NCBI GenBank assembly: GCA_021234155.1
Contig: JAJEKV010000819.1
Coordinates: 1 to 64,000 of the forward strand
DNA: 64,000 nt
From: Isoetes taiwanensis
Lineage: Eukaryota > Streptophyta > Lycopodiopsida > Isoetales > Isoetaceae
Direction of reading: 5' to 3'
Each line of letters opens with the position of its first letter. Position 1 is the stretch's first letter. This document shows positions 16,071 to 59,460 of this stretch, piece by piece. The notes beneath the pieces were generated by a model that worked only from the letters and a program-made list of their open reading frames with translations, did no database searches and was not told the DNA's origin. A program made the position numbers and the translations under genes.

Positions 16071-16914
16071 TACCATTATGAAGACCTACGCTTATCCCTA
16101 TTCCATGCAAGGGCACTCTTCCTCTTAATTTTATAAGAGCCTATCCCATGCATTCCTATTCTTTTCTATCTTCTTTTAAATATTATTAGTTTAAACATTA
16201 CTAATACTCTTTCCACGAACAATACACAGGACCTTGATGTTATGTTTCTCGTTGTTTATCCTGCACTATTAGAGGATAGCCAATAGTGGGATAGTGGGAA
16301 TACCACCATCACTATGAACTAAGGCCCTCTATTTAATAGGCACCAGAGCACAAGGCAATAGCATAGGTTCAAATTTGGCCAGAACGAGTCACTGCAGGAA
16401 TATGTTTGCTTAGTCACTATGCCAGTATCAACTCCCTTCCCCAAATGCAAGGGAGCTAAGAAAGAGAAATGTTCGCGGCTGCCAAGGCCGCTGCGATAAA
16501 TTTCTTGTATCAATAAGGATTCTCGTTCTGGTACAAATGAAAATCTCTATTGTACTGCTTGTAAGAATACTGCCATTTATGTCTACATGAAAGAGATTAG
16601 AATTATTGGAACAATGTTACTGTGCAAAGTTTATGTGATGGTTTTCATCAAATATTTCATTATTCAATTTGGCTACATTTAAGAGCAAAGCATAGCATCC
16701 ACATGTGAAGGCACTATTCAAGGTCAGAAAAACTTTTACATTAATTGTGTCCTCTACTTTCGTTTATAAATTGAAATTGTATATTGCAATATGAGATCTG
16801 CTATTAGATGGTTTTACATGAAGAAGGTGTAACCCTGATTGTAGATAATGTTTCCTATAATCTGGTTGTGATACACATCCACATGAAACCATTTATAGTA
16901 ACTGTCATCTTACA
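16071..16914. other. Intergenic; carries one copy of a dispersed repeat
   Basis: No gene. Around 16,462-16,515 is a segment with GAAATGTTCGCGG and CCAAGGCC, then ATAAATTTCTTGTAT. It recurs, diverged, at 28,869-28,918. Confidence 0.45.
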
Positions 16915-16980
16915 TTAGAAATCAAAATTGTATATTGGACTCAAAGTCTTAGAAATCAAAATTGTATATTGGACTCAAAG
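16915..16980. repeat. 34-bp tandem duplication
   Basis: A 32-bp segment beginning TTAGAAATCAAAATTG occurs identically at 16,915-16,946 and 16,949-16,980. Confidence 0.9.
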
Positions 16981-17423
16981 ATTTAGTATTTGAAGCTGGG
17001 GGCAAAACTGTTCAGAGTGACTTGAATATCAAATATCTTCTCTCCATTAGAAAATTCGAGCATATTAGGTAATCAAACAACAAGTGCCAAATCCCGAAGA
17101 TAAGCATTTCCATACATGCAGATGGTCCTGTTTGCTGATCTTTGTAAAACGCATGTCAATATGGAATTAAAACTCCTATATTATGGTTCCCTTTATTGTT
17201 TCCATATGTTCTTTATCTGTTTATCTTTATTCTAATACTGGCAAATCACCATATTCTTACAGTTGTTTATTTTTTGGCACTTATGTACTTACATAAACAA
17301 CCTCTATAGTGTATATTTCTTGGCACTTACATACTTACATAAACAGGCTAACTGGCCCATAAAGCTTACCTATGTTTGCTTTAGTTAGGGCCCGAAGGGC
17401 CCAAAAATTTTCTTAATATAACA

Positions 17424-17870
17424 ATCAACACACAATTACCATTAACATTATTAATACAAACCATTGCATTTAACACATTTAAATTAAAATCCCCCTCAAA
17501 CCCCCTTTGGTTTGGGTGCATATTCATACGGGGGGTTACTCCGGGCAACGAGAGCTGTCGGATGGGCATATTTGCCCTTTATTCCAAGATCTGGACCGTA
17601 CATAGCGATCCTCGTTTGTGGGGTATGCATATACAAGTTTTTGTATACTGTATATTAAGGTTTGCAAAATACTATAAGGTTTGAGAGAATGTACTTAATG
17701 GCGTTAATTTTGTACATGTATTGTAAATATATTCTTGGGGCTCTCGCTGCCCTACATAACACCCCGTGTGAATATGCACCCAAACCAAAGGGGGTTAGAG
17801 GGATTTTAATTTAAATGTGTTAAATGCAATGGTTTGTATTAATAATGTTAATGGTAGTTGTGTGTTGCTT
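17424..17870. repeat. Inverted repeat, arms about 110 bp, spacer about 225 bp
   Basis: The left arm (17,426-17,537) and right arm (17,758-17,869) are reverse complements with only a few mismatches. For example the left arm has AACATTATTAATACAAACCA and the right arm has its exact complement. Outer arm ends are near CAACACACA and inner ends near CACGGGG. No transposase or obvious terminal duplication is seen. A transcript would fold into a long near-perfect hairpin. Confidence 0.88.
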
Positions 17871-18555
17871 TATTCCCAATTCTTCTAATAGCCTTCTTGT
17901 CCATATTATTTCCTTTGCTGCTAGAGTAGTGGCTGCATATTCTGACTCAACAGTTGATAATGCTATGGAAGATTGCTTCTTGCTTCTCTAGCATATTTAT
18001 ACGTATTTATACCATACAATTAACGTATCACAAAGTATGCTACGCAGGTCAATACTATATGGTTTAATGACCTCATGCATTCTAAATCAAAATTCCTTCT
18101 ATGCAAAATTATCAAATTCCTAGTGTACTACACATCTACCCGTTTTCAATCATGTCCCCAAGCCTGCCTTACCGCTAGTTTCCTTTTTTTTTTTTTGGGG
18201 GGGGGAACTCTATAGGCCCATCAAATAGTAATTTTGCATCAAGACATACCTCTGAGATTCTATATCTATTCAAAGCATATGAATGCGTTATAAGAAGGGG
18301 AATAGAATATATATAATAAAGTTGAAGCTAGAATAACTAGAATAATTCTCCCGATTTGCTAGAGAACTACTCTTAGAATCTAGTCAAATATAACATGTTA
18401 AATATAGAGTGAAATAAAAATAGATTGACAAGCTACATATGATTTGATAATAATTATTTCCATGTCATTTATCATAAAAGATAACTTTTTTTTCTTCTTA
18501 ATATTACAAGATAAAACATACAGAAATTGGCTTTTGGGCATCTTGTACGCATAAC
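17871..18555. other. Intergenic, AT-rich
   Basis: It contains a T12 run joined to a G9 run near 18,185-18,206. Nothing else is supported. Confidence 0.45.
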
Positions 18556-18707
18556 TCAAACTACTGCCAACCCCAAGGTTTTGCCTTCATTGGGCAAAAC
18601 CAACTGATTATATACCTTCACATCTTTTAGAGAACCTGTAAAAAAAGATGTTTTATCTCGTGCATCATCACCCATGAACACTGGTATATTTCCATCTAGG
18701 TTCCTGT
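18556..18707 (-). pseudogene. Inverted fragment of the metzincin-LamG gene (end of second LamG)
   Basis: The reverse complement of 18,601-18,706 matches 28,095-28,200, inside exon 3 of the metalloprotease gene, at about 102 of 106 positions without gaps. The frame is preserved (NLDGNIPVFMG, then TGSLKDVKVYNQL). After the last matched base the two sequences differ. This copy runs through a GGTTTTGCC hairpin into 16 further codons and a TGA at 18,556-18,558. Only the terminal piece of LamG is present, so it cannot be a functional gene. It is a recent duplication by identity. Confidence 0.85.
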
Positions 18708-19833
18708 AACGAACCTAGTGACCTTGGGGGTATGGTTTTAGCAAACTTATTTTTATCTAAACATTGTGTAACATTAAGGGGTCCTATTTTAGCATTTCAA
18801 ATTTGGTGAGCACCATAAAAGCGGGGCTACCAAAATCATAATCTGTGTTGCGAATATCAGAAATCCCAAATAGCCAGATTAGGGGAAGCCATGCAAGATC
18901 CGGCACCCCAGCATGCCGAATAGGCATATGGCGAGATGCCACATTTGTGTTATGGCAGGGTTGTTTTCCTCCATGCTTGACAGTTGCACTATTATCAGTT
19001 CTGATTTTCTTCCTCTTCATGGGATTCAATGCCAGCTTGGCACATTGTTCTAAGTTGTAACAAAACTTTTATTCAACATACATGTTCTTGCAATTTCAAT
19101 GTATGCCCACTGTCTGTTTATGGGCTTTATTTGTGTTCAACATTGTTCTTGTCTTATATGACTAAGCTGCACAACTTTGTTCATTAGTAATTTCTGTGTA
19201 GATCTTGTGTTATGTGTTTGACTGCATCATTGACTTCGAACCATGGCCTCAAAATCATAGGCGGACATGGAATATGGGGTTTGACTCCATCTTCTTCTTG
19301 GGCCGACGACCAGGGTTGCAAGATAGGGAATATTCTGTGGTATATTCCATGATTCAATGGCCAGGGTGAAACGCGTTATGAGGGTGAAACGAGTATGAGT
19401 ATGAGTATTGTGCCAGATAATATATTTTAAGAAGGAATAATTTTAAGTTGGGGTCTGCAGTTCTTGGAGCAGTCTTCAGCGTATGTTTGAAGTGCGTGCC
19501 CTTAAACTTCTAACACGTGTTTTGAGTGCTTCTATTAATGCATGCTTGAAATTTCATTTGCCATGCAACTTCCAATTTCTGAGGGAATAAATTTATTTGT
19601 AGTTTGCAGTTTTTTGGAGCAACATTCAATGTATGTTTGAGGGCCGGTACTATCATAATCAGACATACGTGTGGTGTCAGGCTCTCACACATTTCCAAGA
19701 GGAGATTGTAACATAATATATATCTCACACTTGACTGATGCAAATCTGTCAGAGCCAGCTGGACACAAGATTTAAGGCCGTTGAAACCTCAAAAATCTCA
19801 AGATGCTTAGGTTTTTGCCTGATGGGCTTTTAG
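18708..19833. other. Intergenic; short frames only
   Basis: An 81-codon minus-strand frame at 18,784-19,029 contains a plausible peptide (VASRHMPIRHAGVPDL) but no motif I can name. Nothing else is supported. Confidence 0.4.
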
Positions 19834-20499: not shown

Positions 20500-21262
20500 T
20501 GCGGACAACTAGCATCCAAAATTACGATACTAAAAAATGTATATAGAAAGACCATTCCATAAATTAATGATAATTTCTAGAGACCATCGTAAAATCTAAA
20601 ATTCATATAATTAAATATAGTAAGAAGTAACATTGATTTTGTAAATTCAATATATGTCGATAACTAGCATCCAAAAGCATCAGAAACTGTGATATTAAAA
20701 ATGTATATAAAAACATCATTCCATAAACTAATGATGATTTCTAAAGGCCAACGTAAAATATAGAATTCATATAATAAATATAGTATAAAGTAGCAATGGT
20801 TTTGCAAAATCCATATATGCATGAAACCCATCTTGTAAATTGTTGATGATTTCAAAAACTATTGTACAATTGTAGAATTCATATAATTAAACATGATATG
20901 AACTAGCAATGATTTTGCCAAATCAGTGTGCACTTAAAAACAATCTTACAAACTAATCATGATTTATAGAAACTAGTGTAAAATTTCGAATTAGTACAAA
21001 AAATATGATATTAACCACTATTGCTTCTGCAAAATCAATATATGTATAAAACACATCTCCTAAACTATTGATGATTTTAAAAAACTATAGTATGATTGTA
21101 GAATTTATGTAATTAAACATGATATGAACTAGCAATGATTCCGCTAAATCAATGTACACACTAAAAACAATCTCATCAATTAATAATGATTTGTAGAAAC
21201 TAGTGTGAACTTTCGAGTTAGTACAAAAAACATGATATATGAACTACTATTGGTTTTGCATA
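20500..21262. repeat. AT-rich tandem repeat, about 115-bp unit, roughly six diverged copies
   Basis: A GCAATGATTTTGCAAAATCA-like phrase recurs near 20,630, 20,794, 20,908, 21,022, 21,131 and 21,248. Between copies, ATGATTT-TAGA-ACTA-TGT and AATTCATATAATTAAA-CATGATATGAAC elements keep the same order. Copies are substituted, not exact. One interval is longer (164 bp). Confidence 0.7.
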
Positions 21263-21581: not shown

Positions 21582-21863
21582 ATGTACAGAGACAGCCGAC
21601 TAGGGAAGGCAAGAAGGGACACCTTAGCAAGATTTAGGATGGGGAACCACGATCTAAGAATCGAGAAGGACAAATGGAGGAAAGTGGAAAGGGAAAATCG
21701 GGTTTGTAGAATATGTGACAAAGGGAGAGTAGAGGACGAGAATCACATGCTCAACGATTGTACGGCATATGAAGATATCAGAAGCAAGTACATGCTTATA
21801 AAGTGGGAACAACCAGCACATATCCTAATGGCAAGAGCAAGTACAACGCAATCAGGAAAATGA
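21582..21863 (+). pseudogene. C-terminal part of a LINE ORF2 protein
   Basis: The 93-codon frame has the arrangement typical of the end of many non-LTR retrotransposon polyproteins. ARFRMGNHDLRIEKDKW is followed by a zinc-knuckle-like Cys-x2-Cys (CRIC), then VEDENHMLNDC. The RT and endonuclease domains are absent upstream, where the frame closes at a TAG. This is a 5'-truncated or decayed copy. A related (ATTCT)n tail is found in the neighbouring duplicate at 23,206. Confidence 0.65.
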
Positions 21864-22118
21864 TAACCAGACACCGAGAGGTGCACAGTGAAAGAGGGCG
21901 GGTAATATGAACCATTGAAAGGGTGGGACATTAAAGCCCCCAAAGACAGAGCTAAACGCTGATGATAACGACGCACCACCGCGCGGTCATGATGCCGATT
22001 ATAAGCAGGGTGTCGGTATCAATAGAAAACAAGACAAGCCCTCCGAAAGGCTAGTCAGCATGCAGCGCTAGTAGCACCCCCTGGGGAGCTTGCCCATGCT
22101 ACGTCAGTCTGGGGGCCT
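21857..22118 (+). repeat. Duplicated 262-bp segment, copy A (LINE 3' region)
   Basis: It is identical in length to copy B at 22,925-23,186 and differs at about two positions. It overlaps the end of the LINE frame and continues through the presumed 3' UTR to CTGGGGGCCT. The downstream sequence at 22,119 matches the sequence at 23,282. Copy A therefore lacks the 95 bp (including the ATTCT tail) present in copy B. Confidence 0.92.
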
Positions 22119-22361
22119 ACTAAATACCTTACGTATTAGGGTCTGTTCCACATCTTCTGCTAGTTGAGATGAGCTGGGTTTTGGATTTCCTCGTCCGCCG
22201 CGTCCCCGACCCCGTCCGCCTCGTCCACTTCCTTGTTTTAGTAGACATGGCCGAATCATGAAGTTACCGAGCTGGAAGGTCGCTTGAATTGCTGAACAAA
22301 AAGAACTGCCAAGAAATAGCGATCGACTTGCACAAAAGTTTTGGATTTTAACTGAACCCAA
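22104..22361 (-). other. Minus-strand frame with an RG-rich stretch
   Basis: The frame contains GSGRGGRGRGRGGRG followed by NPKPSSSQLAEDVEQTL, a composition typical of RGG-type RNA-binding tails or transposon protein N-termini. It sits within the duplicated region, and copy B at 23,340-23,360 has lost most of the RG codons. It could be an exon fragment. I cannot name a family. Confidence 0.2.
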
Positions 22362-22924
22362 TAATTAAAGGTTTCAAAATATTGTTGAAAGGCAATAATA
22401 ATGACGAAGATACTGGGTTTGAAAACACACCGCATCCATTTTCTTTTTTCATTTGCATCCAATTTCTTGTAGATTGCGAGAAACCGGATCTTTCACGTGA
22501 TATTTCGTGTTGCATTGACATCCAACAAATCACGGAACATCGTATTGGGATTCATCGGGCCGAAAAATCAATGCTAAACGCGGTGATTGCCTCGTGCCGG
22601 TATCGAGGGAGCCATGAAATTCCCGAGAGAGGGAGGATAAGTGAATTGAGGAGAATTTTCGCGGGCCATGTGAAGTAATCCAATTTGTAACGCGTACTAC
22701 CACACCACTCGCTGAAAAATCCAGCCAAAATCCCACAATCATTTTTCCTAACGGTTCGTTCGCGGAGGTGGGCGTAAAGCGTACATGAAGGGCGTAAAAA
22801 AAAATGGGCGATTACACCCATCACACCAGTTAAGCAAAAAGGGGGTGCTTTAAGCGGGCAAAAACCCTGCTATAAGCATGCGTCCGGACGCATGCTTTTG
22901 ATACCCACTAGCATACTTTCACCC
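22119..22924. repeat. Rest of the duplicated block, copy A
   Basis: Segments matching copy B include ACTAAATACCTTACGTATTA at 22,119 (B: 23,282), and 22,309-22,403 (B: 23,559-23,653), which is essentially identical over about 95 bp. The part from 22,404 to 22,924 is not duplicated and holds no recognised gene. Confidence 0.7.
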
Positions 22925-23653
22925 AAAATGATAACCAGACACCGAGAGGTGCACAGTGAAAGAGGGCGGGTAATATGAACCATTGAAAGGGTGGGACATT
23001 AAAGCCCCCAAAGACAGAGCTAAACGCTGATGATAACGACGCACCACCGCGCGGTCATGATGCCGATTATAAGCAGGGTGTCGGTATCAATAGAAAACAA
23101 GACAAGCCCTCCGAAAGGCTACTCAGCATGCAGCGCTAGTAGCACCCCCTGGGGAGCTTGCCTATGCTACGTCAGTCTGGGGGCCTCAGGGCACTAGGGA
23201 CAATAATTCTATTCTATTCTATTCTATTCATGCAGAAGAGAGATACTCTCATACAATCTACACTCTATAACAAAAAGCCAGACTAAATACCTTACGTATT
23301 AGGGTCCGTTCCACATCTTACGCTAGTTGAGATGAGCCGGGGGTTTTGGATTTCCTCGTCCGGGTGTTTTAGTAGACATGCTTCTAATCATGAAGTTACC
23401 GACCGAAGGTCGCGTATTTAACCCGTCGCCTCGTCCACTTGCACAAAGTTTTGGTGTTTTAGTTAGACATGGCGAATCATGAAGTTACCTCGTGAGAGCA
23501 TATATTAGAGGAAGGTCTCATTTTGAATTGCTTGAACAAAAAGAGTCCGTATTTTATTCCAAGAAATAGCGATCGACTTGCACAAAAGTTTTGGATTTTA
23601 ACTGAACCCAATAATTAAAGGTTTCAAAATATTGTTGAAAGGCAATAATAATG
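22925..23653. repeat. Duplicated block, copy B (rearranged)
   Basis: It begins with the 262-bp match to copy A, then the ATTCT tail, then the shared ACTAAATACC segment. Internally it carries a second, altered copy of the TAGACATGGC-GAATCATGAAGTTACC phrase (near 23,385 and 23,465). Copy B was therefore further rearranged after or during duplication. Confidence 0.8.
23206..23225 (+). repeat. (ATTCT)4 tail of the LINE 3' end
   Basis: Four perfect ATTCT units follow CACTAGGGACAATA directly downstream of the LINE 3' region. Many LINE clades end in short tandem tails instead of poly(A), so this probably marks the true element end. Confidence 0.5.
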
Positions 23654-25098
23654 GCTTGTATTGAAATAAGATACGGTTTTGAAAAACACACTAAAGATTT
23701 TCGTAGAAGTTATTTCGTTGATTACTTTATACCTCGTAAATACAGTTACCCTAATCAATCTTCTAATTTAAATTTCCCCGAGCGCCCATAATTTGAAGAA
23801 CTCGAGAGCGATCCATCTAGAATGTCTACTGCAGTCTAGTAAGCATTTCAAATCCTAAAATTATATAAGAATTTCGATAAGAAGATACTATTACAAAGAT
23901 ATTATTCAAGCTTGGGCAAGTTTATTAAAGCTTCATGTATGTGGAGTCTATATAGAAAACAGAGTTGCTTGAAGGATTTTTCACGAAAAAAAGACGTTTA
24001 TAAGCAGTGAATGTATGAAATTTCCTTTCTTAACAAGATTAATATAAGAAGGAATTGACAAGAAATACAAAGTCTAATTTGAGTTTCTTACATCCATCTT
24101 TATGAACAATAAGGAACTGACATGAAATACATAAACCAAAATAGTACATCTAGCTCATAACACCTACCTGGTTTAATTTTTTTATTTCAGACGTGGACAA
24201 GAAGTGAAATTTGAGCATATCGTATACTAGCTGATGTTGCATGCAAGCATCGATTTGAAATCCTTTATGAGTACGGAAGAGCTCTCATTTCGCGAGCTTT
24301 CCAGCCACCCACCCACCCCTGGTTATTGTTTGCCTAATGACGGGATTTTTTTGTAGCAACACAAGTAAAACCTTGACCTCTTGGGGAATTTCTTTTCGTA
24401 CAAGATGAATAGAATATAATAGAATAGGTTTTTTAACGTCCAATACAAGAAGGAATCGACAAGAAATAATTTGAGTTTCTTACCTCTAGCTTTATGAACC
24501 AGAATCTTATGTCTAGCTCCATAACATCTACTGGGTTTAATTTTTAAATTTCACATTTGAATCCGTGGCCCGAGATGCAACTACAGCTACAACTCCACTC
24601 CACTGTAGTTCAAGACAGCCACTCACAACATTCAAGTTGAATTTAGCTTTCATGCGATCTCAACCTTCAAATTAGACCTCTCCTATGATCTTGGCCTTTC
24701 AGATAGAGCATATCCCTTGTGCACCACATCAACCCAAAAAGCAAATCTGTGGTAACTTAGAGTTGCAAAAACTTTTTTTGAACAAGGCAGAAGAAGAAGC
24801 GGACAACAGACTGCCCTGCCCTGGTAGCATGGCAATGGAATTGCTCTGCAAAAGCTGTTGGGAAGTGTTTCAGATCTAGCTTAAGTTATCGCCTAAGTAA
24901 ATAGAAGACCCGAACACATAACAATTCCTATAGTTCTCTGATTTAACATGAAACACCACAATCATGTAGACTCTTATTTAATTTCTTCTGCATCGTAAGT
25001 ACGTTTAAGAAACTGTGGGCAACTGTACATTTGGATAGTAGAACGTGGGGAACTGTACATTTGTATCGCCTGTTCTTATCAGCTTAGTAAAAACAGAC
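23654..25098. repeat. Intergenic with a diverged direct repeat
   Basis: The segment at about 24,047-24,190 (AAGAAGGAATTGACAAGAAA ... TAATTTTT) recurs shortened at about 24,445-24,555. A 19-bp repeat GTGGG(C/G)AACTGTACATTTG lies at about 25,015 and 25,044, just upstream of the metalloprotease gene. It may belong to that promoter. No other gene is seen. Confidence 0.5.
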
Positions 25099-25106: not shown

Positions 25107-25143
25107 ACGACAGAGGATGGGACACAAGCAGGGCTTCTTCAAA

Positions 25144-28100
25144 ATGCAGAGAGCATTTCTCATGGGATTGGGCGTGCTCTTAATTTGTGTGGGTAAGATT
25201 GAGGTTGAGGGGGGATGCTTTCAGCCAGAGAGCTTCAGCCAAAGCATAGGCAAAGGGGGAGACGTGGTGGAGGTGGATTTTAAGCTGTTTCCGATCCGAA
25301 GCCCCAACTTCGCCGTGTTGGTTGAGCAGGCAGATGGCAGCTTCAACATCAAGGCAACGGATGTTCCGTCTGAGCGGACATACCTGGGCAGCGTTAAGGG
25401 GCAGCCCGGGGCCATGGCATCCGGCCTCATCAGGGCCGACGGAACTCTGCTCTGCCGGATCAGCTTCGAAAATGGTGCCGAATGGATCAGCACTAACTCT
25501 TCCTTCTCCACCAGAGGCCTCTCCAAATGGACCCCTCAATGGCCTACCACCACTGTTCCTCCTTCTTCCTCCAATTCTGTCCTCGTTGTTGCTGAAGTTG
25601 GAGTCGATTCAAGCTTTGCCCACTACGTTGCTTCAGGTCAGTTTTAGCCTATTTCATAACCTCCACCTACATTAGGAATGCTTTAAAATATCAGTTAATA
25701 GCTTTCCTTATTCTCTAGGGGTGCTAAACATGCTCATATTCTCTTCTAGATGCTGGCCATACTGATATTGGAATACAATAGCTAAACCTGGTAGTGTGGA
25801 GATTCTTGAGGTCATCCATATAATGTGGCTAGCTAAATACGTCATTCTTATAAACCGAACATTACATATACATCAAGGCTGCACAAAAACTTCCACATTA
25901 TTGGTCAAGATTGAAAGTGACTAAAGCCCACATACTCTTCATCTCACTCAATTTTAGTTTTATAACTTGGAAGAACAAATGCCAATATACATGATGGGCT
26001 ATAGACGGAATTAATGCACATTTTGTTATGCAAATTTTTTATCAACTTTTTAACTCTATAAAATGTTACTAGGTTCAAACATCCTCGGAACCCTCGACAT
26101 GGTGGAGTTCTCAATTATGGCTGCAAATATCCCCTTCATTCGTGATGCTTCTATCCTTCACAAAATAGGCAAGGTTGTGATACGAGCTAACCAATCAAGG
26201 GATCCTTATTCAAGTACTGATACTGGTGTCCTACTCGATACGGTGAGAAAGCAGTGGAATACCGATATTGCCGCAATTGTGGGTAAGACTCATGATCTAG
26301 CACTTGTAGTTAATCCTGGGGCAGGAGGTGGTCGCGCTTGGGTTGGAACAGTAGGCACTTCATCTGCATATTCTTCAAATGGGGCCGACAGAAATGGCGA
26401 CTTCTCTGTCATTTGGCGCCATGAAGCGGGCCATAATTGGGGTTCTAATCACTATGAAGGAGGAGGAAGACCAGAAGGACCTACCATAATGTCTGATAAC
26501 CAACTCTCTCGATTTTCATCTTCCGAACTAGCCAAGATTCTGCTTTATAAATCCAAACTCTCACTTCCATTACTTCTTATCCTCGGCCCCTCAGGCAAAC
26601 ATGGATGTTCTTCGAAAGCTTTCCACGCTTCTATCATTGTCAATGCTCTAGCCAATGATTTGGATGCAAATGTAAAAGGATTGCAAATCATCTCTACTCA
26701 AAACCTTGCACCTACAAATAGCATCATTCAAATCTCAGACAATCAGGTCCTTTATACACCATCCTTAGCAGCTTTGTTGTCAGTTGATTATTTCAGCTAT
26801 CGAATACGAAACAATCAGAGTGCCACTTCTACTGGATATATTATCATACGCCCTAATTCTTTAATAGGTTGGTGGAAGATGGGTGATCCGATCGTAGAAG
26901 ACTCATCCGAAGAGGTGCATCCGGAAGCATCGGGATCAACAACATGGGACGTGGGAAATGGGGCACTTATGTTTGGAGGTGCGTGCATGGTTTCATTTGG
27001 CACAAAACCATCTTTGAATGGTACAATTTCTTTTACGATTTCTGCATGGGTGCGGGTGCCTGCAACTGCTACCTCCAGAGGAGTCATTATCCAACAAAGA
27101 AGTCCAAGTTCGGACAAAACCAAAGGGTTATGTTGGCGAAAGTACCAATTATCCATAGATGGTGGAAGGCTCAATTCTTCGTTTATGGAGACAATGAGTA
27201 CCAATTTTCATTATCCTCGATGTTGCTCTCAACGACTATAAGTGGCATCATGTTAGTCTTCTTTACTCAATTTGACATCCCCTTTGAATTTCAGAAACTT
27301 CGGTACTTTAAATCTTAAAAATATGATAGAATCTAATTTTCTAGAGAAAAGGGTTAAAAAGTATAATTTAACCTTGAAAGTTTACAGGTTGTGGCAGTGC
27401 GTGACATCAATGAAGGTTGCATCTACATCGATGGTAAATTAACGGCTTATGCAAATGGCATTGTTAGAAATTTAGATGGAAACATCCCAGTTTTCATGGG
27501 TTCTGATGCTAGAGACAATACTTCTTTCTTTATCGGGTCCTTGATGGGATTGAGGCTATACAATCGCACTTTGAACTCTGATGAGATCAACTATCTAAGC
27601 ACACGTCCAGAGGCTCTTATTGGATGGTGGAAAATGGATGAGACAAGTGGTGCTATTATTAACGATTCTTCTGGAAATAGAGCAATTGGAAGTATTACAG
27701 GATCAGTAAGTTGGGAGCAAGATGGTGGGCTTAATTTTGAAGGTGCAGGAAAAGTCTCCTTTGGGACAAAACTATCTCTCACTGGTAAGACTTCGTTTTC
27801 CATTCATGCATGGGTGAAGATCCCTAAAACTACTAGTCCATTAGCTTTTATTATCAGCCAAAGAAGCCCACCAGATAGCACAACTAGTGGCTACAATGGT
27901 GAATATTGGCTTGCTCTCGTCAATGGAAAACCAAATTTTATGGTGTTTGGAGATCGTAATTACCAATTTAACTTGCTTGCATCTATAACAATCAATGACA
28001 ATCAATGGCATCATATTGTGGGTGCACGTGACGGTGGGGAGGGTTTCATCTACATCGATGGCATACTTTCTGCATCTGTCAATGGCACAACAATCAGGAA

Positions 28101-28284
28101 CCTAGATGGAAATATACCAGTGTTCATGGGTTATGATGCACGAGAAAAAACATCCCTTTTTACAGGTTCTCTAAAAGATGTGAAGGTATATAATCAGTTG
28201 GGATCTATAGAGAAAGATCTCGCTAGGATGAAAAAATGCGCTGGGATGGCAATTCCGGTCGGCAGAGCAATGCAAAAACCTTAA
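25144..28284 (+). CDS. Secreted metzincin-type zinc metalloprotease with Big/cadherin-like and two LamG domains (3 exons)
   Basis: Exons are 25,144-25,636, 26,073-27,251 and 27,388-28,284. The GT-AG introns are 436 and 136 bp, and the first join keeps the frame. The product is about 855 residues. In order: a signal peptide (MQRAFLMGLGVLLICVG), a reprolysin-type propeptide (EVDFKLFPIRSP...), and a catalytic domain with the metzincin zinc site HEAGHNWGSNH and a Met-turn-like PTIMSD. A bacterial-type cadherin-like/Big module follows (VNALANDLDAN ... VDYFSYRI), then two LamG folds each opening LIGWWKM. Upstream ATGs at 25,045 and 25,117 are less likely because they precede the TATA-defined start and extend past the signal peptide. 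It should be secreted and cleave an extracellular substrate, which is unknown. Odd points: three small frameshifts in LamG 1 (about 27,128, 27,165 and 27,218) and an atypical C-terminus. The domain order is common in bacteria, suggesting old transfer followed by intron gain. It may be intact if the frameshifts are sequencing errors. Confidence 0.85.
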
Positions 28285-28363
28285 ATATGTAGGATGCCTG
28301 CTAGATTCCACGGGACCGAATGCCTCTTCCACATAATTAGAAGTCCTGCCTATTCTTAAGTAA

Positions 28364-28579
28364 GGATACTTCTTACCCTGCTTCGTCGACACCTCTAAAA
28401 TCAAAAAAGGGCTGAAGGATTTGAGCCACCAGGCCATGTCGGCCTCACCACAGCCCTGGCCTACTCAACAAGGAAATCGAAATCCAACAGCAAATATTTT
28501 TGCAGCACAACTCAAATTTACTGGCCCACCCAACTGGGAAAAATGTCGCCCTCCATTTGATGTTACTAGGAAAAAGGTC
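28364..28579 (+). other. Exon-like coding stretch of unknown family
   Basis: An open frame from about 28,364 ends at AAAAAG|GTCAGT, a good splice donor. The product is Pro/Gln-rich (SASPQPWPTQQGN) and then reads FTGPPNWEKCRPPFDVTRKK. It may be a downstream exon of the metalloprotease transcript, a captured fragment, or part of another gene. No family recognised. Confidence 0.25.
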
Positions 28580-30330
28580 AGTTCAACCATTTTTTTAAGC
28601 CTATTTTCCAAATTGTTTTGCAAAAACTCTGAAAAATTGCCAACTCTTTTTTAACTCATCTGAGTTTTTAAGGATGGCCGCATTTTTTGGGGCTAAAGGA
28701 ATTGTGTGAAGTTACTCTATATGCTTTTAGGATAATCATTTTCCATATATATATTGGCACGTACAGAGGTTAGAATTCTCCAAACTCAGACATGGTTCAT
28801 TTTTTGCATGTCCATAACAAAACTAAGATCCTTTCAATTTAATACAAAACCTCTTTCGTATCGAGTTGAACAAAAGAAATGCTCGCGGTGCCAAGGCCAT
28901 TGTAATAAATTTCTTGTATATATAATACAAGTTTTTGTATTATGAAGGACTGCACAAAGCCGAATAGAATCCAAATGCATAGCCATCCGATGAAGATTCT
29001 ATAAAGATTCTCTTAGAGTCTCCAAGACTCTAAAAAGATTCCCCAAGCTTCATTGAGATTCCATTAATGTTCCCTTATATTCCCCAAAACCCCTTGATGC
29101 TTCCTAAACATTCCCTTAGATTTCCCAATATTTTATGAAAATTCCCCTGCAAATGTTCTGTAGTATGCGGGCACTCATCATAAAATTACTTAATATTTTA
29201 GCTGATCTATCCATTAAATGCATGATAGAAATTTTGCTGATCTATTCATTAAATGCATGATAGAAATTTCAACAAATTGGGCTGCATGCAGTGTATGGCA
29301 AAGTATTTCAAATGAATGGGAAAATTTCCTTCTAGTCTTAGGATGAACAGGCATCTGCAGATTTGAATGGGACTTAACCTACTAATAAAATTTTGGTTCG
29401 AAAAATTGCCTTCAGATCTCATAAACACATAAACAAAACAAATTTGTAGCCTACAAAGAAACCGCAATATAGTATTAAATTGTAGCAAAATTAATATAAA
29501 CAGGACATGTTCCTAGGACTCTAATGAGTAATGTTTCGTCAATGAGTAGCTTACTGCAGCAAAGTTAAAAGTCTTCCATCTTAGCTCCCTCTAATGAGAT
29601 GTGAAGTGTCCATGTGGAACTTATTCCTTGGTTATTCTTTACTAACCAACTATATTAAAAACTCCTATAACTTATTTTTTGTACCGAAAAAAAAAATCCT
29701 TATACGCCTCTTTTTTACCGGCCGTATATCTTACTATATTTCAAGTGAATCGGAAAATCATTTTTTGAACCGGAAATTCTGTGAAGCGCCTAGGACTTTG
29801 CCACACATAGGCTGCATGGAAGCACGGCTGCAACAAAAGCCATATCTTTTTCATTATATCATATGATAAGATGGGAATCTGCAGCAAACTCCCATGGGAA
29901 TCTTACAAACTCTTCAAAATCCTCCCAAAACAATTATGGTGTGGGATCGAAAGGATTTAAAGAGATAAGAATAGTTATTTTGCATGTTTGCGAGAATTCA
30001 TCCTGCCAAAGCAGGTGAAATGATACTTGAAATGATACTTGAATTGGAGCTCGGTTTGTCAAGTTTTGGCATTCTGGCATGTTTAACAGTCTCATTGATT
30101 GAAGAAATAAATAAGGAAATGAGGTCACGTAGCTCTGAAAAAGATAAAAAATGTGACCCATAAATTCATGTAGAACATCTGTAAATGAGAGAATCTATTA
30201 TGAAATAGACTAATGCATGAAGATGTCCTGACCTGAATTCCATCTTGAATGCAATCATTAGCAATCTCATAGACACCAGCATTTTGGCAAAGATATCCAT
30301 GGTAACTTAGGCACATCAGATGCATTCTTC
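28580..30330. other. Intergenic; low-complexity AGATTC/CCCTTA-rich tract and a dispersed repeat copy
   Basis: The 28,869-28,918 segment is the second copy of the repeat at 16,462. The 28,985-29,160 segment is built of loosely repeated GATTCC-, TTCCC- and CCTTA-type words. No gene is supported. Confidence 0.45.
29201..29269. repeat. 35-bp tandem duplication
   Basis: Segments starting GCTGATCTAT-CATTAAATG at 29,201 and 29,236 differ at one or two positions. Confidence 0.85.
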
Positions 30331-43147: not shown

Positions 43148-44650
43148 GTGCAGGCTAACTGCTATGTAGAAGGGTTGGCATCTCTGGAGGAGGAGGAACC
43201 CGGGCTAAGCTGCTGCATCGGGAAACCAAGTCCTAAGAACACGGACACCATAATAACCACGGCAGTGGGGGTGAACTTGCTGGAGGCGCAAGCAGAGGAA
43301 AAGGCTGTATTAGACACTCGAATCGCTATGAGAACCATTTTGGAGTCCCTTTACCGCACGGATGGCTAGGAAAGTCTGCGGAGAAGGGGAAGTCTCGGCA
43401 GCTTGTGGTAGTGGATCCGGATGTACCGGAGCTAGTGCTGCTGTGGAGCGGCAGTCATTGAAAAGTTCCGATTGAGCAAGGAGGACATCCGCAGCATTCT
43501 CGAAGCGCACAAAGATCCCAAAGGGATTGGGATGGGGAAAGGCACTGCTAAGGAGGCGATGGCTTGGATCGACAAGCTTGAGACCTTCTTTGAGGCTACC
43601 AATAAAGGTGATATAGCGATTGTTTATTGAACGTGAATCTATGAAATCGGACTTATAGTTGGTGGAATGGTCCTACCATGAAAAAGGAGGTGAATACCGG
43701 TCCGATTTCGGAAGTACTTTATTGGGAGTATACCAAAGATGATGCTCGCGGATGCTTGAGAAGCCGCGCAGACCGTAGCATTGTTGTGTTCTCTCGCTTA
43801 TATCAATAAGGTACGGGGTTATATCCACAGGGTTGGAGACTTGATCGAGGCTCGGCAGGTTGATTTCTTTCTAGGTGGTCTATCCAGTGTTGCTCTCAAG
43901 AAGCAGATAACCGGGTTGAAGCCCGAGGATTTTGAGAGGGCAACGATGTTGGCTCGTCAGCTTGGGGAAGAGGATGAGTCCTTTAAGAGGACGTCCCGGA
44001 AGTTCTCGAAGAAGAAAAACAGGTTTTTCAAGAAGAAAAAGTCTGAAAAGTCTGAGCAGCCTAAGTCTAAGTGCAGGGGAGAGTCTAAAAGCGTAAGGCG
44101 GACTCTAAGTCCCGGTGGTCCGGGAAGGGTATTTTCTCGCTATAGGTGTGGGGAGCCTGGGCATATTAGTCGTGAATGCTCTCAGCCACAGAACAAGAAA
44201 GCTGATAACAAGAAAGCAAACGTGCCTGAAAAGGCTGAAGAAGTATTGGAATCTAAGACGGTTTCAGCCATTGCCAAGGAAGAGCTGTGCGCGCTGGATA
44301 AGCCCGCAAGCAAGGACATCATGGATATGTTTGCTGGACGGGTGATTAGATTCTTAGGCAGAATCATGGGCCGAAACGTTGTTGTGTTACTGGATTGTGG
44401 CTCTTCTGACATGTTTATATCTTCTAAGTTGGTGGAAGAACTGCACCTACCTTGTGTAAAGACCAATAAGTACAAGGTAGATGGGCCTTTTGTGAACGAT
44501 TCTCAGGTGGAGGATCGTAAAGCTATTGGGGTGCCCTTGTGTATTCAAGGATACTATGAAAAGCTTGACTTTGACCTCTTAGATGTTGGCCGGTATGACG
44601 TGGTGCTGGGGATAACATGGTTGCAGCGGGTTAAGCCTCATTTGCAATAG
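43148..44650 (+). pseudogene. gag-protease region of the gypsy element
   Basis: The first part is broken into short frames (43,148-43,369, then shifted). From 43,781 a 289-codon frame carries the end of a retrotransposon gag domain (VDFFLGGL...LKKQITGL), a Lys-rich stretch and a zinc knuckle YRCGEPGHISREC. The first Cys of the usual C-x2-C is Arg (CGC in place of TGC). A retropepsin-like domain near 44,388 reads LLDCGSSDMFIS, so the catalytic D-S/T-G is DCG, followed by DVVLGITWL. Gag would form the particle and protease would process it. Both key sites are altered. Confidence 0.8.
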
Positions 44651-44681
44651 ATTGGAACACTCACCGTGTGGCTGAAGCACG

Positions 44682-45776
44682 ATGGACGGAGATCTATCTG
44701 CAGGGGAGTCCTTTGTGGGAGCTTCCAAGATCGCGGTCGTCGCTTCAGTCAAGAAACCGGTACGTAAATCTTCCAATCAATGTTTTCTTCTATTTATTGA
44801 TGAATGTTATCCTACTGTTGAGTGCTGTCATATGAGTGCTGATAGTGAGGTCATAGAGGATTCAAAAGGCCAGAAAGAGTTGCAGGATCTGTTATATGAA
44901 TTTCAGGATGTGTTCCCTGAGGAACTGCCTGAAGGCCTTCCACATAGTAGAGAGATTGAACATGAGATTGATTTAGAGCCTGGATCCAAACCTGTGTTTC
45001 GTAGCCCTTATAGATTGTCCATATTGGAACAAGAGGAGGTAAAGAAGCAGGTTCATGAGCTGTTAGCCAAAGGGTTTGTGAGACCTAGCAAATCCCCTTA
45101 TGGTGCTCCTGTCATTCTAGTCAAGAAAAAGGACGGATCAATGCGGATGTGCATTGATTATCGTGCCTTGAATAAGATCACGATCAAGAATAGGTATCCT
45201 TTGCCTAGGATTGACGAGATCATGGATAGATTAACAGGAGCTAAATATTTTTCTAAGTTGGATTTGCGTAGTGGTTATCACCAGATAAGGGTGAAGGAGT
45301 CGGATGTGCATAAGACTGCCTTCAGGACCACCTTTGGTCATTTTGAATTTTTGGTGATGCCTTTTGGACTAACGAATGCTCCTGCTACTTTTTCCAGAAT
45401 GATGAATGAGGTTTTTGCAGGATGTCTTGATACTTTTGTTGAAGTATTCTTAGATGATATCCTGGTGTATAGCAAAACCTTGAATGAGCATTTGAATCAT
45501 TTGCGTTATGTGCTAACTCTGCTCAGACAGCATAAGTTGTATGCAAAAATGTCAAAGTGTGAATTTTTGAAAGCACAGGTGGAATATTTGGGCCACATTG
45601 TATCTGCTGAAGGTGTAGCTATGGATCCCAAGAAGACGGAGGCAATTCAGTCTTGGCCTGTGCCAAAGAATGTATCTGAGTTGCGTAGTTTCTTGGGGTT
45701 GGCCAGTTATTATCGCAGATTTATGCGGAAGTTTGCCAAGATTGCAGGCTGCTTTGACTATGTTGTTGAAAACTAA
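44682..45776 (+). pseudogene. Reverse transcriptase of the gypsy element
   Basis: A 364-codon frame covers the fingers and palm: [20 protein letters not shown], then [15 protein letters not shown], then [12 protein letters not shown]. The catalytic box is [10 protein letters not shown] (usual form YxDD; the two Asp remain). It continues to the thumb/connection [11 protein letters not shown]. It copies element RNA into DNA. The frame is lost after 45,750, at the entry to RNase H. Confidence 0.9.
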
Positions 45777-46440
45777 TGTCCGGTGGCAATGGGACGGTGA
45801 AGCGGCGGCAGGCAATGGATATCTTTCAAGAGGTTGCTGACCCTCGGGTAGCCTATTGTTGATTCCGGACATGAGTAAACCTTATGAGGTTTACACGGAT
45901 GCATGTGGTTATGCCATTGGTGCTGTTCTCATGCGGGGATGGTAGAGTAGTGGCGTATGAAAGTAAGCCAACTCAATCAGCTTGAGAAGAACTATTCCAC
46001 ATATGAGCAGGGAGTTCTTGGCAATGGTTCATGCGCTCAAAGTCCGGAAACATTATCTAAAGTAACAAGTGTGAGTTTGTGGTCTATACCAGATCATAAA
46101 CCGTTGAAATTCCCGCAAAGCCGGCCGAGGTAAGTCCAAGGCAAGCAAGATGGTTGGACTTTCTTTCTCAATTTCATTTTCATGTTGAACATCTTCAGGA
46201 AAAAAAGAATCACATTCTTTGATGCTCTTTCTAGGGTTGAAGTAAATGTGATGGTTCAATGTGAAATTGCTTTGGTGTCCTGATTAAGCAAGCATATGAC
46301 TTGGATGCCTATATTTTAAGTATCAAAGATCCGTCCAAGTTACGGATGCTTGGGATATCCGTAATGGTCTCTGGTATCATAAGGGGCGTATTTATGTTCT
46401 ATTTGTGGACACTTTGAGAAAGCAATTATTGGCTAATTTC
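45777..46440 (+). pseudogene. RNase H and connection region, frameshifted
   Basis: Fragments in different frames include VYTDACGYAIGAVL near 45,888 (normally D-A-S at the first catalytic Asp region), then NQLEKNYSTYEQGVLAMVHAL and QARWLDFLSQFHFHVEHL. The order is right, and at least three frame changes separate them. Confidence 0.75.
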
Positions 46441-47283
46441 ATGATGCACCCTATCTTTGGGCATGGGGGGTGAGTGGAAAACATATGAATCGCTCAAGAG
46501 AATGTTTTATTGGCCTAGCTTGAAAGAGGATGTGCAGGAATATGTAAAAGTATGTGAGACTTGTCAGCAGGTTAAAGCGGGTCGAGGCAAAACTCCAGGG
46601 CTTTTGCAACCTCTGCCGGTGCCAAAGGAGAGATGGAGTGAAATCTCTATGGATTTCATTGTGAAATTGCCTCGTAGTGTGCATCACTATACTCAAATAC
46701 TTGTCATTGTGGATAGGTTGACGAAGTATGCACGCTTTATACCTCTGACAAAGAATGCTGATAGCTTGGCTGTGGTCAAGGCTTATATGCAGCATGTATT
46801 TCCTATTTTTGGATTACCCAAAGCTATTGTAAGCGACCGAGATGTGAAATTCACTGGGAATTTTTGGCGTGAATTGTTCTCTGCATTGAAATGCACTCTT
46901 CAGTTCTCTAGTGGAGATCATCCGGAAACGGATGGGCAAACTGAAAGAGTGAATCAGATTCTGGAGGATATGCTGAGATCTTATGTGGCCACTCAGCAAT
47001 CCAGATGGGAGGACTATTTTCCAATTGTGGAGTTTGCTTACAATAATGGGTTCCAACTGAGCATCAAAACTAGCCCTTTTGTGGCTATGTTTGGGAGAAA
47101 TCGGAAGGACCTGTAGACGCTTGGTTTTGATGGGCTGAAAAACCGATCTTTGCTATAAGTATGCTTGAAGGCATGGATGTGACGCTTGGGTTGTGTCAAT
47201 TACATATGAGACAGGCCCAGGATTGGGCACATGCCAATTTGTCAAGAGCCCCGATCGAGCTGCATGAGGGTCAAATGGTGTAA
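46441..47283 (+). pseudogene. Integrase of the gypsy element, C-terminus missing
   Basis: The HHCC zinc site begins HPIFGHGG at about 46,447. It is separated from the rest (CETCQQVK) by a one-base shift in a run of six G. The catalytic core keeps Asp in SMDFIVKLP, Asp in VSDRDVKFTG and Glu in HPETDGQTERVN. The frame ends at 47,116, and one further shifted piece resembles the start of the C-terminal domain. No chromodomain follows. Confidence 0.88.
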
Positions 47284-48173: not shown

Positions 48174-48830
48174 TCAAAAAAGTTCCTTTCTAGAACGATC
48201 TTCTCTAGGTCCTGTCAATTTCCCCCGTAGATTAAGTTCTTGGGTATAGTGTTTGTATCTCTTCGACCTTTTTCCTGTAGCTATTTCGTGCAAGATGCTG
48301 ACAAAACGAAGCAGGAAGTCATCTTTGTCAAAATCCTCAGGATGATAGGATGGTGGATTTAGTGACTGTGAGTGATTGAAGCAACACTTCAAGGCGTCAT
48401 CATCAACTATAATGATGTCTTCCTTCTCTCGAGCGCCCAAGTCATCCATCATGTCGCTCAAGCATTTCACAAATATTTTTTTACCTGTAGGATCCTTTGG
48501 GTTATTGAATGACTTACATTTGCTCTGATCCCAAACAGATGCCCAATCTCTATGTAACTCAGGAACTACTCTCAAAACTTCCTGTATATTTCTATTCTCC
48601 ATCGACGACCAAATTGCACTGCTTGAAATAAAAAGAAAGCTTGGTCTAACACCTCCTTCCGACATCACGCCGCGGATATACCCATTTTCAGTATATGTCT
48701 CAAATGGTTTTCGTGCATACCATGATAAAGGGAATTGTGCTTTAGGTAGCGTTTTGCAGAGCACTCCATTCAAATCGAACACGAGAATTTTGGAGGAAAC
48801 TGGATTAGGTGCGTAATAATAAAGCACACA
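48174..48830 (-). CDS. FCP1/NIF-like phosphatase-fold domain (HAD family), probable last exon
   Basis: The frame opens at 48,956, but its first 40 codons translate two palindromic repeat units. The exon therefore probably starts after the minus-strand acceptor TCTCACAAG at 48,831. It reads KILVFDLNGVLCKT (motif I), then FLFISSSAIWSS in the motif II region, then FVKCLSDMMDDLG and IIIVDDDALKCC (motif III/IV region). The family dephosphorylates Ser/Thr of RNA polymerase II CTD and related substrates. Motif I in active enzymes is DxDxT, here DLNGV. The second Asp (acid/base) is Asn and Thr is Val, so activity is doubtful. Similar DLNG variants occur in plant FCP1-like proteins. The C-terminus is basic (GKRSKRYK) and ends in a TAA-type stop at 48,174. 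Confidence 0.65.
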   Translation of the reverse strand, partial: CVLYYYAPNPVSSKILVFDLNGVLCKTLPKAQFPLSWYARKPFETYTENGYIRGVMSEGGVRPSFLFISSSAIWSSMENRNIQEVLRVVPELHRDWASVWDQSKCKSFNNPKDPTGKKIFVKCLSDMMDDLGAREKEDIIIVDDDALKCCFNHSQSLNPPSYHPEDFDKDDFLLRFVSILHEIATGKRSKRYKHYTQELNLRGKLTGPREDRSRKELF

Positions 48831-49517
48831 CTTGTGAGACAAGGGAAAAGAAATTGAAATCGCTAGCGATTTTTTTTTGTTGGAATAATTGAAATCGCGC
48901 TGGCCGAGATTTTCAATTTTGTTTGAAGAATTGAAATGGCGCTGGGCGATTTTCATTTATCATTGAATAACATACCTTTACGGTTCTGTTCAACATCAGC
49001 AATGATGAGCTTACTCGGTTGTCTTCGATTACGCGAGGAAGTGTCGACCCACATCACTTAGTGTTTGAACTATGGTTGATACTTCATTACTCTTTATGCT
49101 AGCGACTCGAGCTTTTACGAATCCAATTGTATCATCTAGGATTTTGTCTTCTTCGTTTTGCGTTACCTACATCCATACGTCACGGATTTTCCAATGTGAT
49201 TGGAATGATAGGCACGCTCTCGGCGCATAGTTAAAATTTATTTGCTTGTCGATATTCTTCTTTATGCCCTCTAGATGCTTTCTCATTTCTTCCAGCTCTG
49301 CGGACCCGGATCTGCGGGTAAAGTCGGACTTAAATTTGGAAGCTTTATTTTTGCACTACCTAAGCGGACCCCTAGGTGCCACCTCTAGCACTTTCTCGAA
49401 AAAATATCGAGGAAGTCCTTGGCTTGACCATCGAGACCACACTTTGGCATTTCCTAGCTAGCTTGAGCTTCCCGCCCGACATAACCTCCAACATGAAACT
49501 CCCAACATTATTAGACT
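48831..49517. other. Probable intron with two palindromic motif units
   Basis: GAAATCGCGCTGG and GAAATGGCGCTGGGCGATTT occur at about 48,890 and 48,935. Plus-strand frames here look accidental. Confidence 0.35.
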
Positions 49518-57952: not shown

Positions 57953-58882
57953 GGATCAAAGGGCACCACATGCGCGGCGTGAAAGGCTGGATGGGGATCT
58001 TGACCAAATGACTTGCGGTTCCTAACATGTTCAAGATTTACAACTTCGTCTTTGTCATGTTAGGAGGTGCCTCTTCCATATCGAGATGGATATTTTTCTT
58101 AGATATGTCACACCTAGAGGAAACATGTGACCGTGTTCTTTGTATTTTTTTTTTTAGTGTTTCTTACGCCAACTCCTCCTCGGCATCACGGTCCATCTTC
58201 AACTCGAGGGCACCTCCAGACTTTCCATTTTCCTCTGCTTTCTGACCCTCGTCTCCTTTTTTGTTTCCCTCCTCCTTTTCTGCGGAATGCTTTCAGCCGT
58301 CGATGCAGTGCCTTTACCTCTCCGATGTGGGGAGGATTTAGTATCACTAATGGTTCTCTCTGAATCTGTTTATAGGGGGACTTGATAGGAGAACCGATTC
58401 GATAGGAGGAGACTTGGGAGCTGACTTGGGAGGAGACCTGGCACTTTCCTCGTCTTTCTTTTGATTCTCTTCCTCATGCTCTGTCCCTTCCATTTGGACT
58501 TCCTTTGGTTTGGCTTTTTCTTCCCTTGGCTTGGTTTTGCCTAAGGTTTGGCTTTTCCTTGAAATCTCGCCGAAGCCAAGTCTTTGTCCATTAGAAGCGG
58601 GCATATTACAAGAGGTCTTGGCTCGACAATATGTGACCGCGAGTTCTTTGATCCGTCCATAGCTGAGCGGAGAATGCCAAATCCTTTAAGTAGCTTCGGC
58701 CAGGTGCCATTAATACCCGGTGCCTCTCTACGCTTTTGCATTATGAAGGCAGCGGCCCGCCTTTTCTTTTGGCGGTATGCGGTCCTTGATCTTTGGATTC
58801 CATCATCGTGGATCGTAAAAGCTGCCGATCCATGCGATGTCTGGATCAATCTTTGCAATTCGCGGGATCCTCCAGCGTGCAA
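57953..58882 (-). pseudogene. Minus-strand low-complexity and basic coding-like blocks
   Basis: 58,882-58,541 reads LIQTSHGSAAFTIHDDGIQR and then a Lys/Arg-rich middle. 58,604-58,347 is charged and Pro/Ser-rich (EEENQKKDEESARSPPKSAP). It may be the N-terminal part of the gene whose blocks lie at 56.9-57.95 kb. The plus-strand frame at 58,584-59,294 overlaps the opposite strand and is less protein-like. Confidence 0.3.
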
Positions 58883-59159
58883 CCAAGGAAGTCTAATCTT
58901 CCCTGCTTTTCACCTCCGCATGTTGACAATGATGCCAAGGCGCATCACAACATCTTGTTCACCACTTCTTGACTTTGTGAGGAGGCAAAGTTCTCTCCTC
59001 TTGTCCCCTTTGTGGGGTCGACCCCTTCCTCTAAAGGGAATTGCCCCGACAATTTCCATGCACCATGGCCTTCCGGCCATGACCCGCGGTCTTCTCAGTC
59101 ACAGCGTTTTGGGCCTTGGACAGCGAAGGCGCACGAAAACAACAAATCAACAATCAAAT

Positions 59160-59460
59160 CATGAAACCCAAACCCAACCCACTCGCCATTTGCATGGAAA
59201 TGAAGCCCGCTTGCGCCATTTTGTCCAAATGAAGCCCTTCGCTCATTTGCGGTCGAGAAAATGGGCATTGGCTGCGCCATTTGCATGGAAATGAAATGCG
59301 ATTGATGCGCCTCATTCCATGCAAATCGCCATTTCCATGCAAATGGCCCATTGCTTTCATTTCTCGTACGGCAAATGGCGCGATTAAACCATTTGGACAC
59401 AAATGGCCTTGATGGCGCCATTCCATGCAAATAGCGTCCTGCGCCATTTCTCATTTGGCG
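59160..59460. repeat. Repeated GCGCCATTTGCATGGAAATG palindromic units
   Basis: CCATTTGCATGGAAATG and its reverse complement occur repeatedly (about 59,187, 59,278, 59,320 and 59,332, and again at 59,615), mixed with AAATGGCGC and GCGCCATTT words. The frames here are the repeat read in three phases. Confidence 0.75.

What the first reader, a model, noticed from the sequence alone, without database searches (positions are those of the whole stretch)
25144..28284. Plant-located secreted metzincin with bacterial-style propeptide, Big and LamG domains
Seen: signal peptide, HEAGHNWGSNH zinc site, Met-turn-like PTIMSD, a VNALANDLDAN module and two LIGWWKM LamG folds, in three spliced exons among plant repeats. 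Known: this order (reprolysin-type propeptide, metzincin, cadherin-like/Big_9, LamG) is common in secreted bacterial proteases and unusual in plants. Inference: an old horizontal acquisition that gained introns. Its role and its substrate are unknown.
Basis: partly seen in the sequence, partly recalled or inferred. Interest (0 to 1): 0.8.

Follow-up and report, generated by a model that had tools for sequence, protein, structure and literature searches.

The report
Bacterial-origin secreted protease in a quillwort
A spore-bearing vascular plant, almost certainly a quillwort, carries a small family of secreted metalloproteases with sugar-binding-type modules that appears to come from Verrucomicrobia-type bacteria, and the copy in this window is a damaged, rearranged member of that family.

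Summary
Exons 25117-25636, 26073-27251 and 27388-28201 encode a hydrophobic N-terminus, propeptide, HEAGHNWGSNH metzincin, Big_9 and two LamG modules. The genome (1,658,258,908 bases, 1,110 contigs) fits the published Isoetes taiwanensis assembly (1658.30 Mb). The window copy is broken as assembled: 11 small indels in exon 2, and a 3' end replaced by sequence found in intron 1 of other copies. One intact 853-aa, three-exon copy lies near the edge of a 4.9-Mb contig; copies on a 7.4-Mb contig are broken or have lost the zinc site. The nearest relative found is a Selaginella protein of the same architecture, 58% identical. The lycophyte clade (100/99) lies, with the tree midpoint-rooted, inside bacterial clades (98/93; 27-row clade 98/83) whose closest named members are Verrucomicrobiota. 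A fern homologue falls in the same clade; liverwort LamGs group with bacterial LamGs rather than with the lycophytes' (95/89). Bacterial origin is well supported; one transfer or several is open. A model of the Selaginella protein resembles the ADAM17 zymogen. Substrate and expression were not tested.

The parts
25117..25636 (+). exon 1: N-terminal hydrophobic stretch, propeptide and first strand of the metzincin domain; open in this copy; a second in-frame ATG is at 25144
   Evidence: against L037 three indels, all multiples of 3
25637..26072 (+). intron 1 (GT..AG, phase 1); about 2.4 kb shorter than in the intact copy L037
26073..27251 (+). exon 2: most of the metzincin domain, Big_9 and the first part of LamG1; 11 small indels against L037, all within 26569-27219
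26420..26452 (+). zinc site HEAGHNWGSNH (HExxHxxGxxH)
   Evidence: identical in L037
26480..26497 (+). PTIMSD, Met-turn-like
26630..26848 (+). Big_9 module
   Evidence: residues 360-432, 26.3 bits
26861..27251 (+). LamG1, first part, frame-broken in this copy; continues in exon 3
27252..27387 (+). intron 2 (GT..AG, phase 0)
27388..28201 (+). exon 3: end of LamG1 and LamG2 (LamG2 from 27616); no indel against L037
28202..28284 (+). foreign tail of the open frame: homology to exon 3 stops at 28201
28204..29153 (+). sequence colinear with intron 1 of other copies (contig C1092 edge copy 93-97%, L040 77-83%)
16645..18708 (-). inverted 3' end of another copy (exon 3 tail 18562-18708) with sequence matching 3' flanks of C1079 copies
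22119..24735 (.). 5' flank shared with the copy at the edge of contig C1092 (matches at 22119-22429 and 23559-24735)

Best explanation
The window holds a damaged copy of a lycophyte gene family of bacterial (Verrucomicrobiota-type) origin. The bacterial ancestor encoded propeptide, metzincin, Big_9 and LamG modules. It entered an ancestor of at least Isoetes and Selaginella, gained introns, had its LamG doubled, and multiplied in Isoetes. The intact product most likely works as a secreted zymogen: a signal peptide sends it to the apoplast; the propeptide folds against the catalytic domain and keeps it latent; removal of the propeptide releases an HExxHxxGxxH zinc protease; Big_9 is a spacer; the two LamG modules bind glycans and hold the protease on a wall, plant or microbial. 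Shown here: architecture, splice-site consensus, bacterial affinity, one intact copy, past purifying selection between two copies. Inferred from a model of the Selaginella homologue and from family knowledge: secretion, latency, cleavage, sugar binding. Guessed: the substrate (arabinosylated wall glycoproteins or surface proteins of microbes).
Confidence: 0.75

Rival explanations
1. Several independent transfers: lycophytes, fern and liverwort each took the gene or a piece of it from the same bacterial family.
For: In the LamG tree the liverwort LamGs group with five bacterial LamGs (95/89) and not with the lycophytes, and starred branches force two changes. All five plant rows of the protease tree form one side of a branch with support of only 25/57, in 26% of bootstrap trees; the quick tree separates the fern from the lycophytes. 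The fern carries a different LamG type, and the liverwort proteins were found with LamG only.
Against: The plant pieces point to the same small bacterial set (P0139, P0141, P0142, P0148/L001; also P0143 for the fern), which one transfer of a whole gene would explain simply for lycophytes and fern. In the best careful protease tree the five plant rows do stand together.
Confidence: 0.55
2. Bacterial contamination in the assembly.
For: The Isoetes plants were grown non-axenically and contaminant contigs had to be filtered out (passages of PMC8566536).
Against: Two introns with GT..AG ends; family members in contigs of 4.9 and 7.4 Mb; a reverse-transcriptase element in the same window; a 58% Selaginella homologue with the same double LamG.
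Confidence: 0.02
3. Ordinary eukaryotic M12B (ADAM-type) gene with vertical descent.
For: The modelled fold is ADAM-like.
Against: In the two protein searches that covered the protease half, the only named eukaryotes were Selaginella and Adiantum; about 7,990 best candidates were scored each time and many hits are unnamed. No PDB sequence matched at E up to 1. The tree places the plants among bacteria, though without animal M12B rows.
Confidence: 0.03
4. The window copy itself is a functional gene and its indels are consensus errors of a long-read assembly.
For: All 11 indels lie within 651 bases, chance about 1e-4 if uniform over the 1,993 coding bases of exons 2 and 3 compared. The published assembly used Nanopore reads, miniasm, racon and pilon.
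Against: The displaced 3' end and shortened intron 1 do not depend on small indels, and other copies are broken too.
Confidence: 0.2

Closest known systems
Verrucomicrobiota reprolysin-like proteins with Big_9 and LamG (Luteolibacter ambystomatis P0136, Haloferula P0138; unnamed P0139, P0142)
   Same: propeptide, metzincin, Big_9 and LamG in the same order; 50-53% identity over the protease half
   Different: these proteins are 1387-1491 aa with further C-terminal regions; the plant copies have introns, two LamG modules of one type, and end after LamG2
Selaginella moellendorffii SELMODRAFT_448687 (P0017)
   Same: same architecture with two LamG modules, 58% identity
   Different: longer, low-confidence C-terminal extension (842-954); listed only as hypothetical / Laminin G domain protein
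ADAM17 and snake venom metalloproteinases (M12B)
   Same: prodomain and catalytic fold of the modelled homologue
   Different: no sequence match in the PDB; no disintegrin or cysteine-rich domain among Pfam hits; two cysteines in L037
Adiantum nelumboides L7F22_037765 (P0173)
   Same: propeptide, protease-like domain, LamG; 38% identity over the protease half
   Different: zinc motif lost; LamG of the other bacterial type
Selaginella GH25 muramidase acquired from bacteria (PMC4241558, passages read)
   Same: another bacterial enzyme gene in a lycophyte by horizontal transfer
   Different: unrelated enzyme family

Membership tests
Verrucomicrobiota metzincin-Big_9-LamG proteins | similarity across propeptide, metzincin and Big_9 | tested here: met
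   alignment
Verrucomicrobiota metzincin-Big_9-LamG proteins | position inside the bacterial tree | tested here: met
   27-row clade 98/83, 35-row 98/93, midpoint root; inside the 27 rows plants and bacteria are not interleaved in the best tree, support 25/57 and 26/65
Verrucomicrobiota metzincin-Big_9-LamG proteins | LamG of the same lineage | tested here: met
   100/97 clade with five bacterial LamGs
M12B (reprolysin/ADAM) metzincins | HExxHxxGxxH zinc motif and Met-turn | tested here: met
   Pfam Reprolysin_3 above cut-off
M12B (reprolysin/ADAM) metzincins | prodomain plus catalytic fold | tested here: met
ADAM / snake venom metalloproteinases with further domains | disintegrin and cysteine-rich domains | tested here: not met
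   no such Pfam hit at E up to 1; two cysteines in L037
plant matrix metalloproteinases (M10A; family recalled) | Peptidase_M10 domain | tested here: not met
   not among Pfam hits at E up to 1
functional gene | open spliced frame in the window copy | tested here: not met
   met by L037
functional gene | transcription and splicing | not testable with these tools
   no RNA reads available

The most novel reading that the evidence does not exclude
One Verrucomicrobiota-type gene for a large latent protease with two LamG types entered an early land-plant ancestor, and its modules were then parcelled out: lycophytes kept protease, Big_9 and one LamG type (doubled); a fern kept a protease-like domain and the other LamG type but lost the zinc motif; a leafy liverwort kept only LamG, now behind another N-terminal region. 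Dead-site forms with open frames (Isoetes L038b, the fern) would then have a second life as glycan-binding or decoy proteins. The liverwort part is the weakest: its LamGs group with bacterial ones (95/89). On rechecking that branch I lowered this from 0.3 to 0.2.
Probability: 0.2. Interest if true: 0.75.

Novelty: new variant of a known kind. Interest (0 to 1): 0.6.

Why it matters
In the searches made here the only named eukaryotes with this protease were Selaginella, a fern and (by its own genome) this plant. A spliced, multiplied, partly intact family in lycophytes is a concrete case of a large multi-domain bacterial enzyme becoming a plant gene, with its bacterial kin narrowed to one neighbourhood of one phylum, and it makes the question of one transfer with module loss against several transfers testable in ferns and liverworts.

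Tried and rejected
Contamination: rejected on introns, contig size and the Selaginella homologue. Vertical eukaryotic descent: disfavoured by the searches and the tree, with the limits told there. RNA families and tRNAs in the window: none at the default thresholds. The Foldseek list is filled by LamG matches and says little of the protease half; one search does.

Literature: ten searches, of which seven looked for this family in plants or lycophytes or for its accessions. Searches (reprolysin plus Selaginella; the two accessions) listed none; in the other listings I saw titles and abstract beginnings only, and none named this family. Seen beyond listings: PMC8566536 (passages), PMC4241558 (passages), PMC9110388 (passages incl. 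part of the abstract), PMC12448838, a 2025 review of transfer into plants (passages; no hit for protease, laminin, Selaginella or Verrucomicrobi), PMC3505017 (outline and abstract), which warns that ancient transfers involving Planctomycetes/Verrucomicrobia are often inferred on thin evidence. The library holds open-licence papers only.

Rows dropped: of the 28 loci, 24 were read as proteins; L021, L025, L026 and L028 were not. The 83-row tree left out P0138, P0004, P0011, P0002 and P0141 as near-duplicates, seven distant rows by name (L020, L023, L024, L027, P0187, P0189, P0190), and hits spanning 250 query positions or fewer; P0017 and P0173 entered under plant names. The window copy and the copies in L039 and L041 were not put in because they are broken; L040 and L038b entered with exon 2 only. 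The 60-row tree dropped 23 of the 83 rows as long, partial or duplicate, chosen. The LamG tree took the best 52 hits spanning at least 140 positions, P0017 and P0138 left out, plus four lycophyte rows; lower hits were not used.

Full report
WHAT IS THERE. Exon 1 is 25117-25636, exon 2 26073-27251, exon 3 27388 onward; both introns have GT...AG ends. Pfam gives Reprolysin_3 and Big_9 above their cut-offs and, in exon 3, Laminin_G_3 at E 2.9e-29. The zinc site HEAGHNWGSNH is at 26420-26452. No PDB sequence matched the first 525 residues at E up to 1.

WHAT GENOME. G000 has 1,658,258,908 bases in 1,110 contigs; the window is the first 64 kb of contig C574, which is 85,046 bases long. It has four LEAFY-domain matches over the cut-off, against none in 14 control genomes, so it is a plant. 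The published Isoetes taiwanensis assembly has 1658.30 Mb in 204 scaffolds and 909 unplaced contigs, 1,113 in all (passages of PMC8566536). The size makes Isoetes taiwanensis near certain, although the piece number differs by three and no tool names the genome. That paper's text has no hit for 'horizontal' nor for protease, peptidase, laminin or transferred.

THE FAMILY IN THIS GENOME. A search with the exon-2 protein gave 10 matches, some of them fragments of one copy: one in C574, one in C1092 (4.9 Mb) and eight in C1079 (7.4 Mb) between 5.54 and 5.64 Mb. L037 on C1092 encodes an uninterrupted 853-aa protein in three exons. On C1079, L038b has open exons 2 and 3 and an open exon-1 piece upstream, but its zinc site reads HDAGLNWGSSQ; L040 has open exons 2 and 3 but an exon 1 broken by stops and frameshifts; the others are interrupted. 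A further exon 1 lies at C1092:1838-2269, near the contig edge. Lone plant-type LamG pieces lie on C1030, C941, C1058, C1074 and C1007. Between L037 and L040 (677 codons of exons 2 and 3) dN is 0.0242 and dS 0.0706, Fisher p 1.9e-5: selection against amino-acid change acted in their past, although L040 now lacks a sound exon 1. For the metzincin part of L038b the difference is not significant (p 0.08 and 0.12).

THE WINDOW COPY. Against L037, exon 1 has 23 substitutions and three indels that are multiples of 3; exon 2 has 26 substitutions and 11 indels of 1-2 bases; exon 3 to 28201 has 32 substitutions and no indel. The 11 fall within 651 bases; uniform scatter would do that about once in 10,000 draws, which fits a local consensus error as well as decay, and the assembly was made from Nanopore reads. 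Independently, homology to exon 3 stops at 28201 and the sequence goes on as in intron 1 of other copies (28204-29153), intron 1 is about 2.4 kb shorter than in L037, and the 3' end of another copy lies inverted at 16645-18708. As assembled it is a rearranged, frame-broken copy.

WHERE IT COMES FROM. With the 525-aa query there are 15 hits: 5 bear an organism name, all bacterial (two Luteolibacter, a Rhodothermales, a Verrucomicrobiaceae, an unspecified bacterium), and 10 have none; the length limit of that search excluded the 954-aa Selaginella protein. With the 853-aa L037 protein the protease half hits 64 proteins: Selaginella P0017 first (58%), then Luteolibacter P0136 and P0137 (53%) and Haloferula P0138 (51%), and further down one fern, Adiantum nelumboides P0173 (38%). 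Of 28 bacterial loci in genome contigs 14 are titled Verrucomicrobiota, 10 Planctomycetota, 2 Actinomycetota, 1 Gammaproteobacteria and 1 unspecified. In the 60-row careful tree the lycophytes form a clade (100/99) within a 27-row clade (98/83) in which each named bacterium is of Verrucomicrobiota, within 35 rows (98/93, adding an Abditibacteriota row) and 44 rows (92/84, adding Planctomycetota and a Rhodothermales row). The nearest bacterial rows by path are P0142 and P0139. Against a simple reading: the five plants, and the 22 bacteria of the 27-row clade, are each one side of a branch in the best tree (25/57 and 26/65), the exact sister is unresolved (lycophytes with P0139, P0142, P0143 and P0148: AU p 0.54; with the fern added: p 0.39), the fern branch is long (1.17), and the root is the midpoint.

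THE LAMG MODULES. The four lycophyte LamGs form a clade (100/95); with five LamGs of the leafy liverwort Calypogeia fissa and those of P0139, P0141, P0142, P0148 and L001 they make a 100/97 clade, inside which the liverwort and the bacteria group together (95/89) and the lycophytes stand apart. The two liverwort proteins lack the protease. The fern LamG is of another type, yet among the 214 proteins held its best hits apart from itself are P0139, P0143, P0142, P0141, L001 and P0148. So one type of bacterial protein carries the closest relatives seen of all the plant pieces. This is the ground for the single-transfer reading; the liverwort branch speaks against including the liverwort in it.

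VERDICT. Observation partly confirmed, interpretation supported, with the correction that this copy is damaged and the intact relative lies elsewhere. After rechecking the LamG tree I raised the several-transfers rival from 0.45 to 0.55 and lowered the single-transfer novel case from 0.3 to 0.2.

Noticed in passing
window 43760-47116 (+): Retroelement-like open frames (Ty3/gypsy by eye); the piece 44676-45773 matches reverse transcriptase RVT_1.
   Followed up: partly
window 48174-48956 (-): Open frame with an NLI-interacting-factor-like phosphatase match, 32.7 bits against a cut-off of 21.8.
   Followed up: no
window 58563-59294 (+): 243-aa open frame without a Pfam match at E up to 0.01.
   Followed up: no
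window 20533-21238 and 21857-23653: Diverged direct-repeat units of 77-91 bases, and pairs of near-identical direct repeats about 1.1-1.25 kb apart upstream of the gene.
   Followed up: no
L071, L072 (contigs C1030, C941): Separate plant-type LamG pieces directly behind a hydrophobic leader, without protease in the open frames seen; frames look interrupted.
   Followed up: partly
P0016, P0025 (Calypogeia fissa): Liverwort proteins with four and one LamG modules related to the lycophyte ones, behind a different N-terminal region.
   Followed up: partly
P0173 (Adiantum nelumboides): Fern homologue with the zinc motif lost (WRLLAGLMWG in its place).
   Followed up: partly
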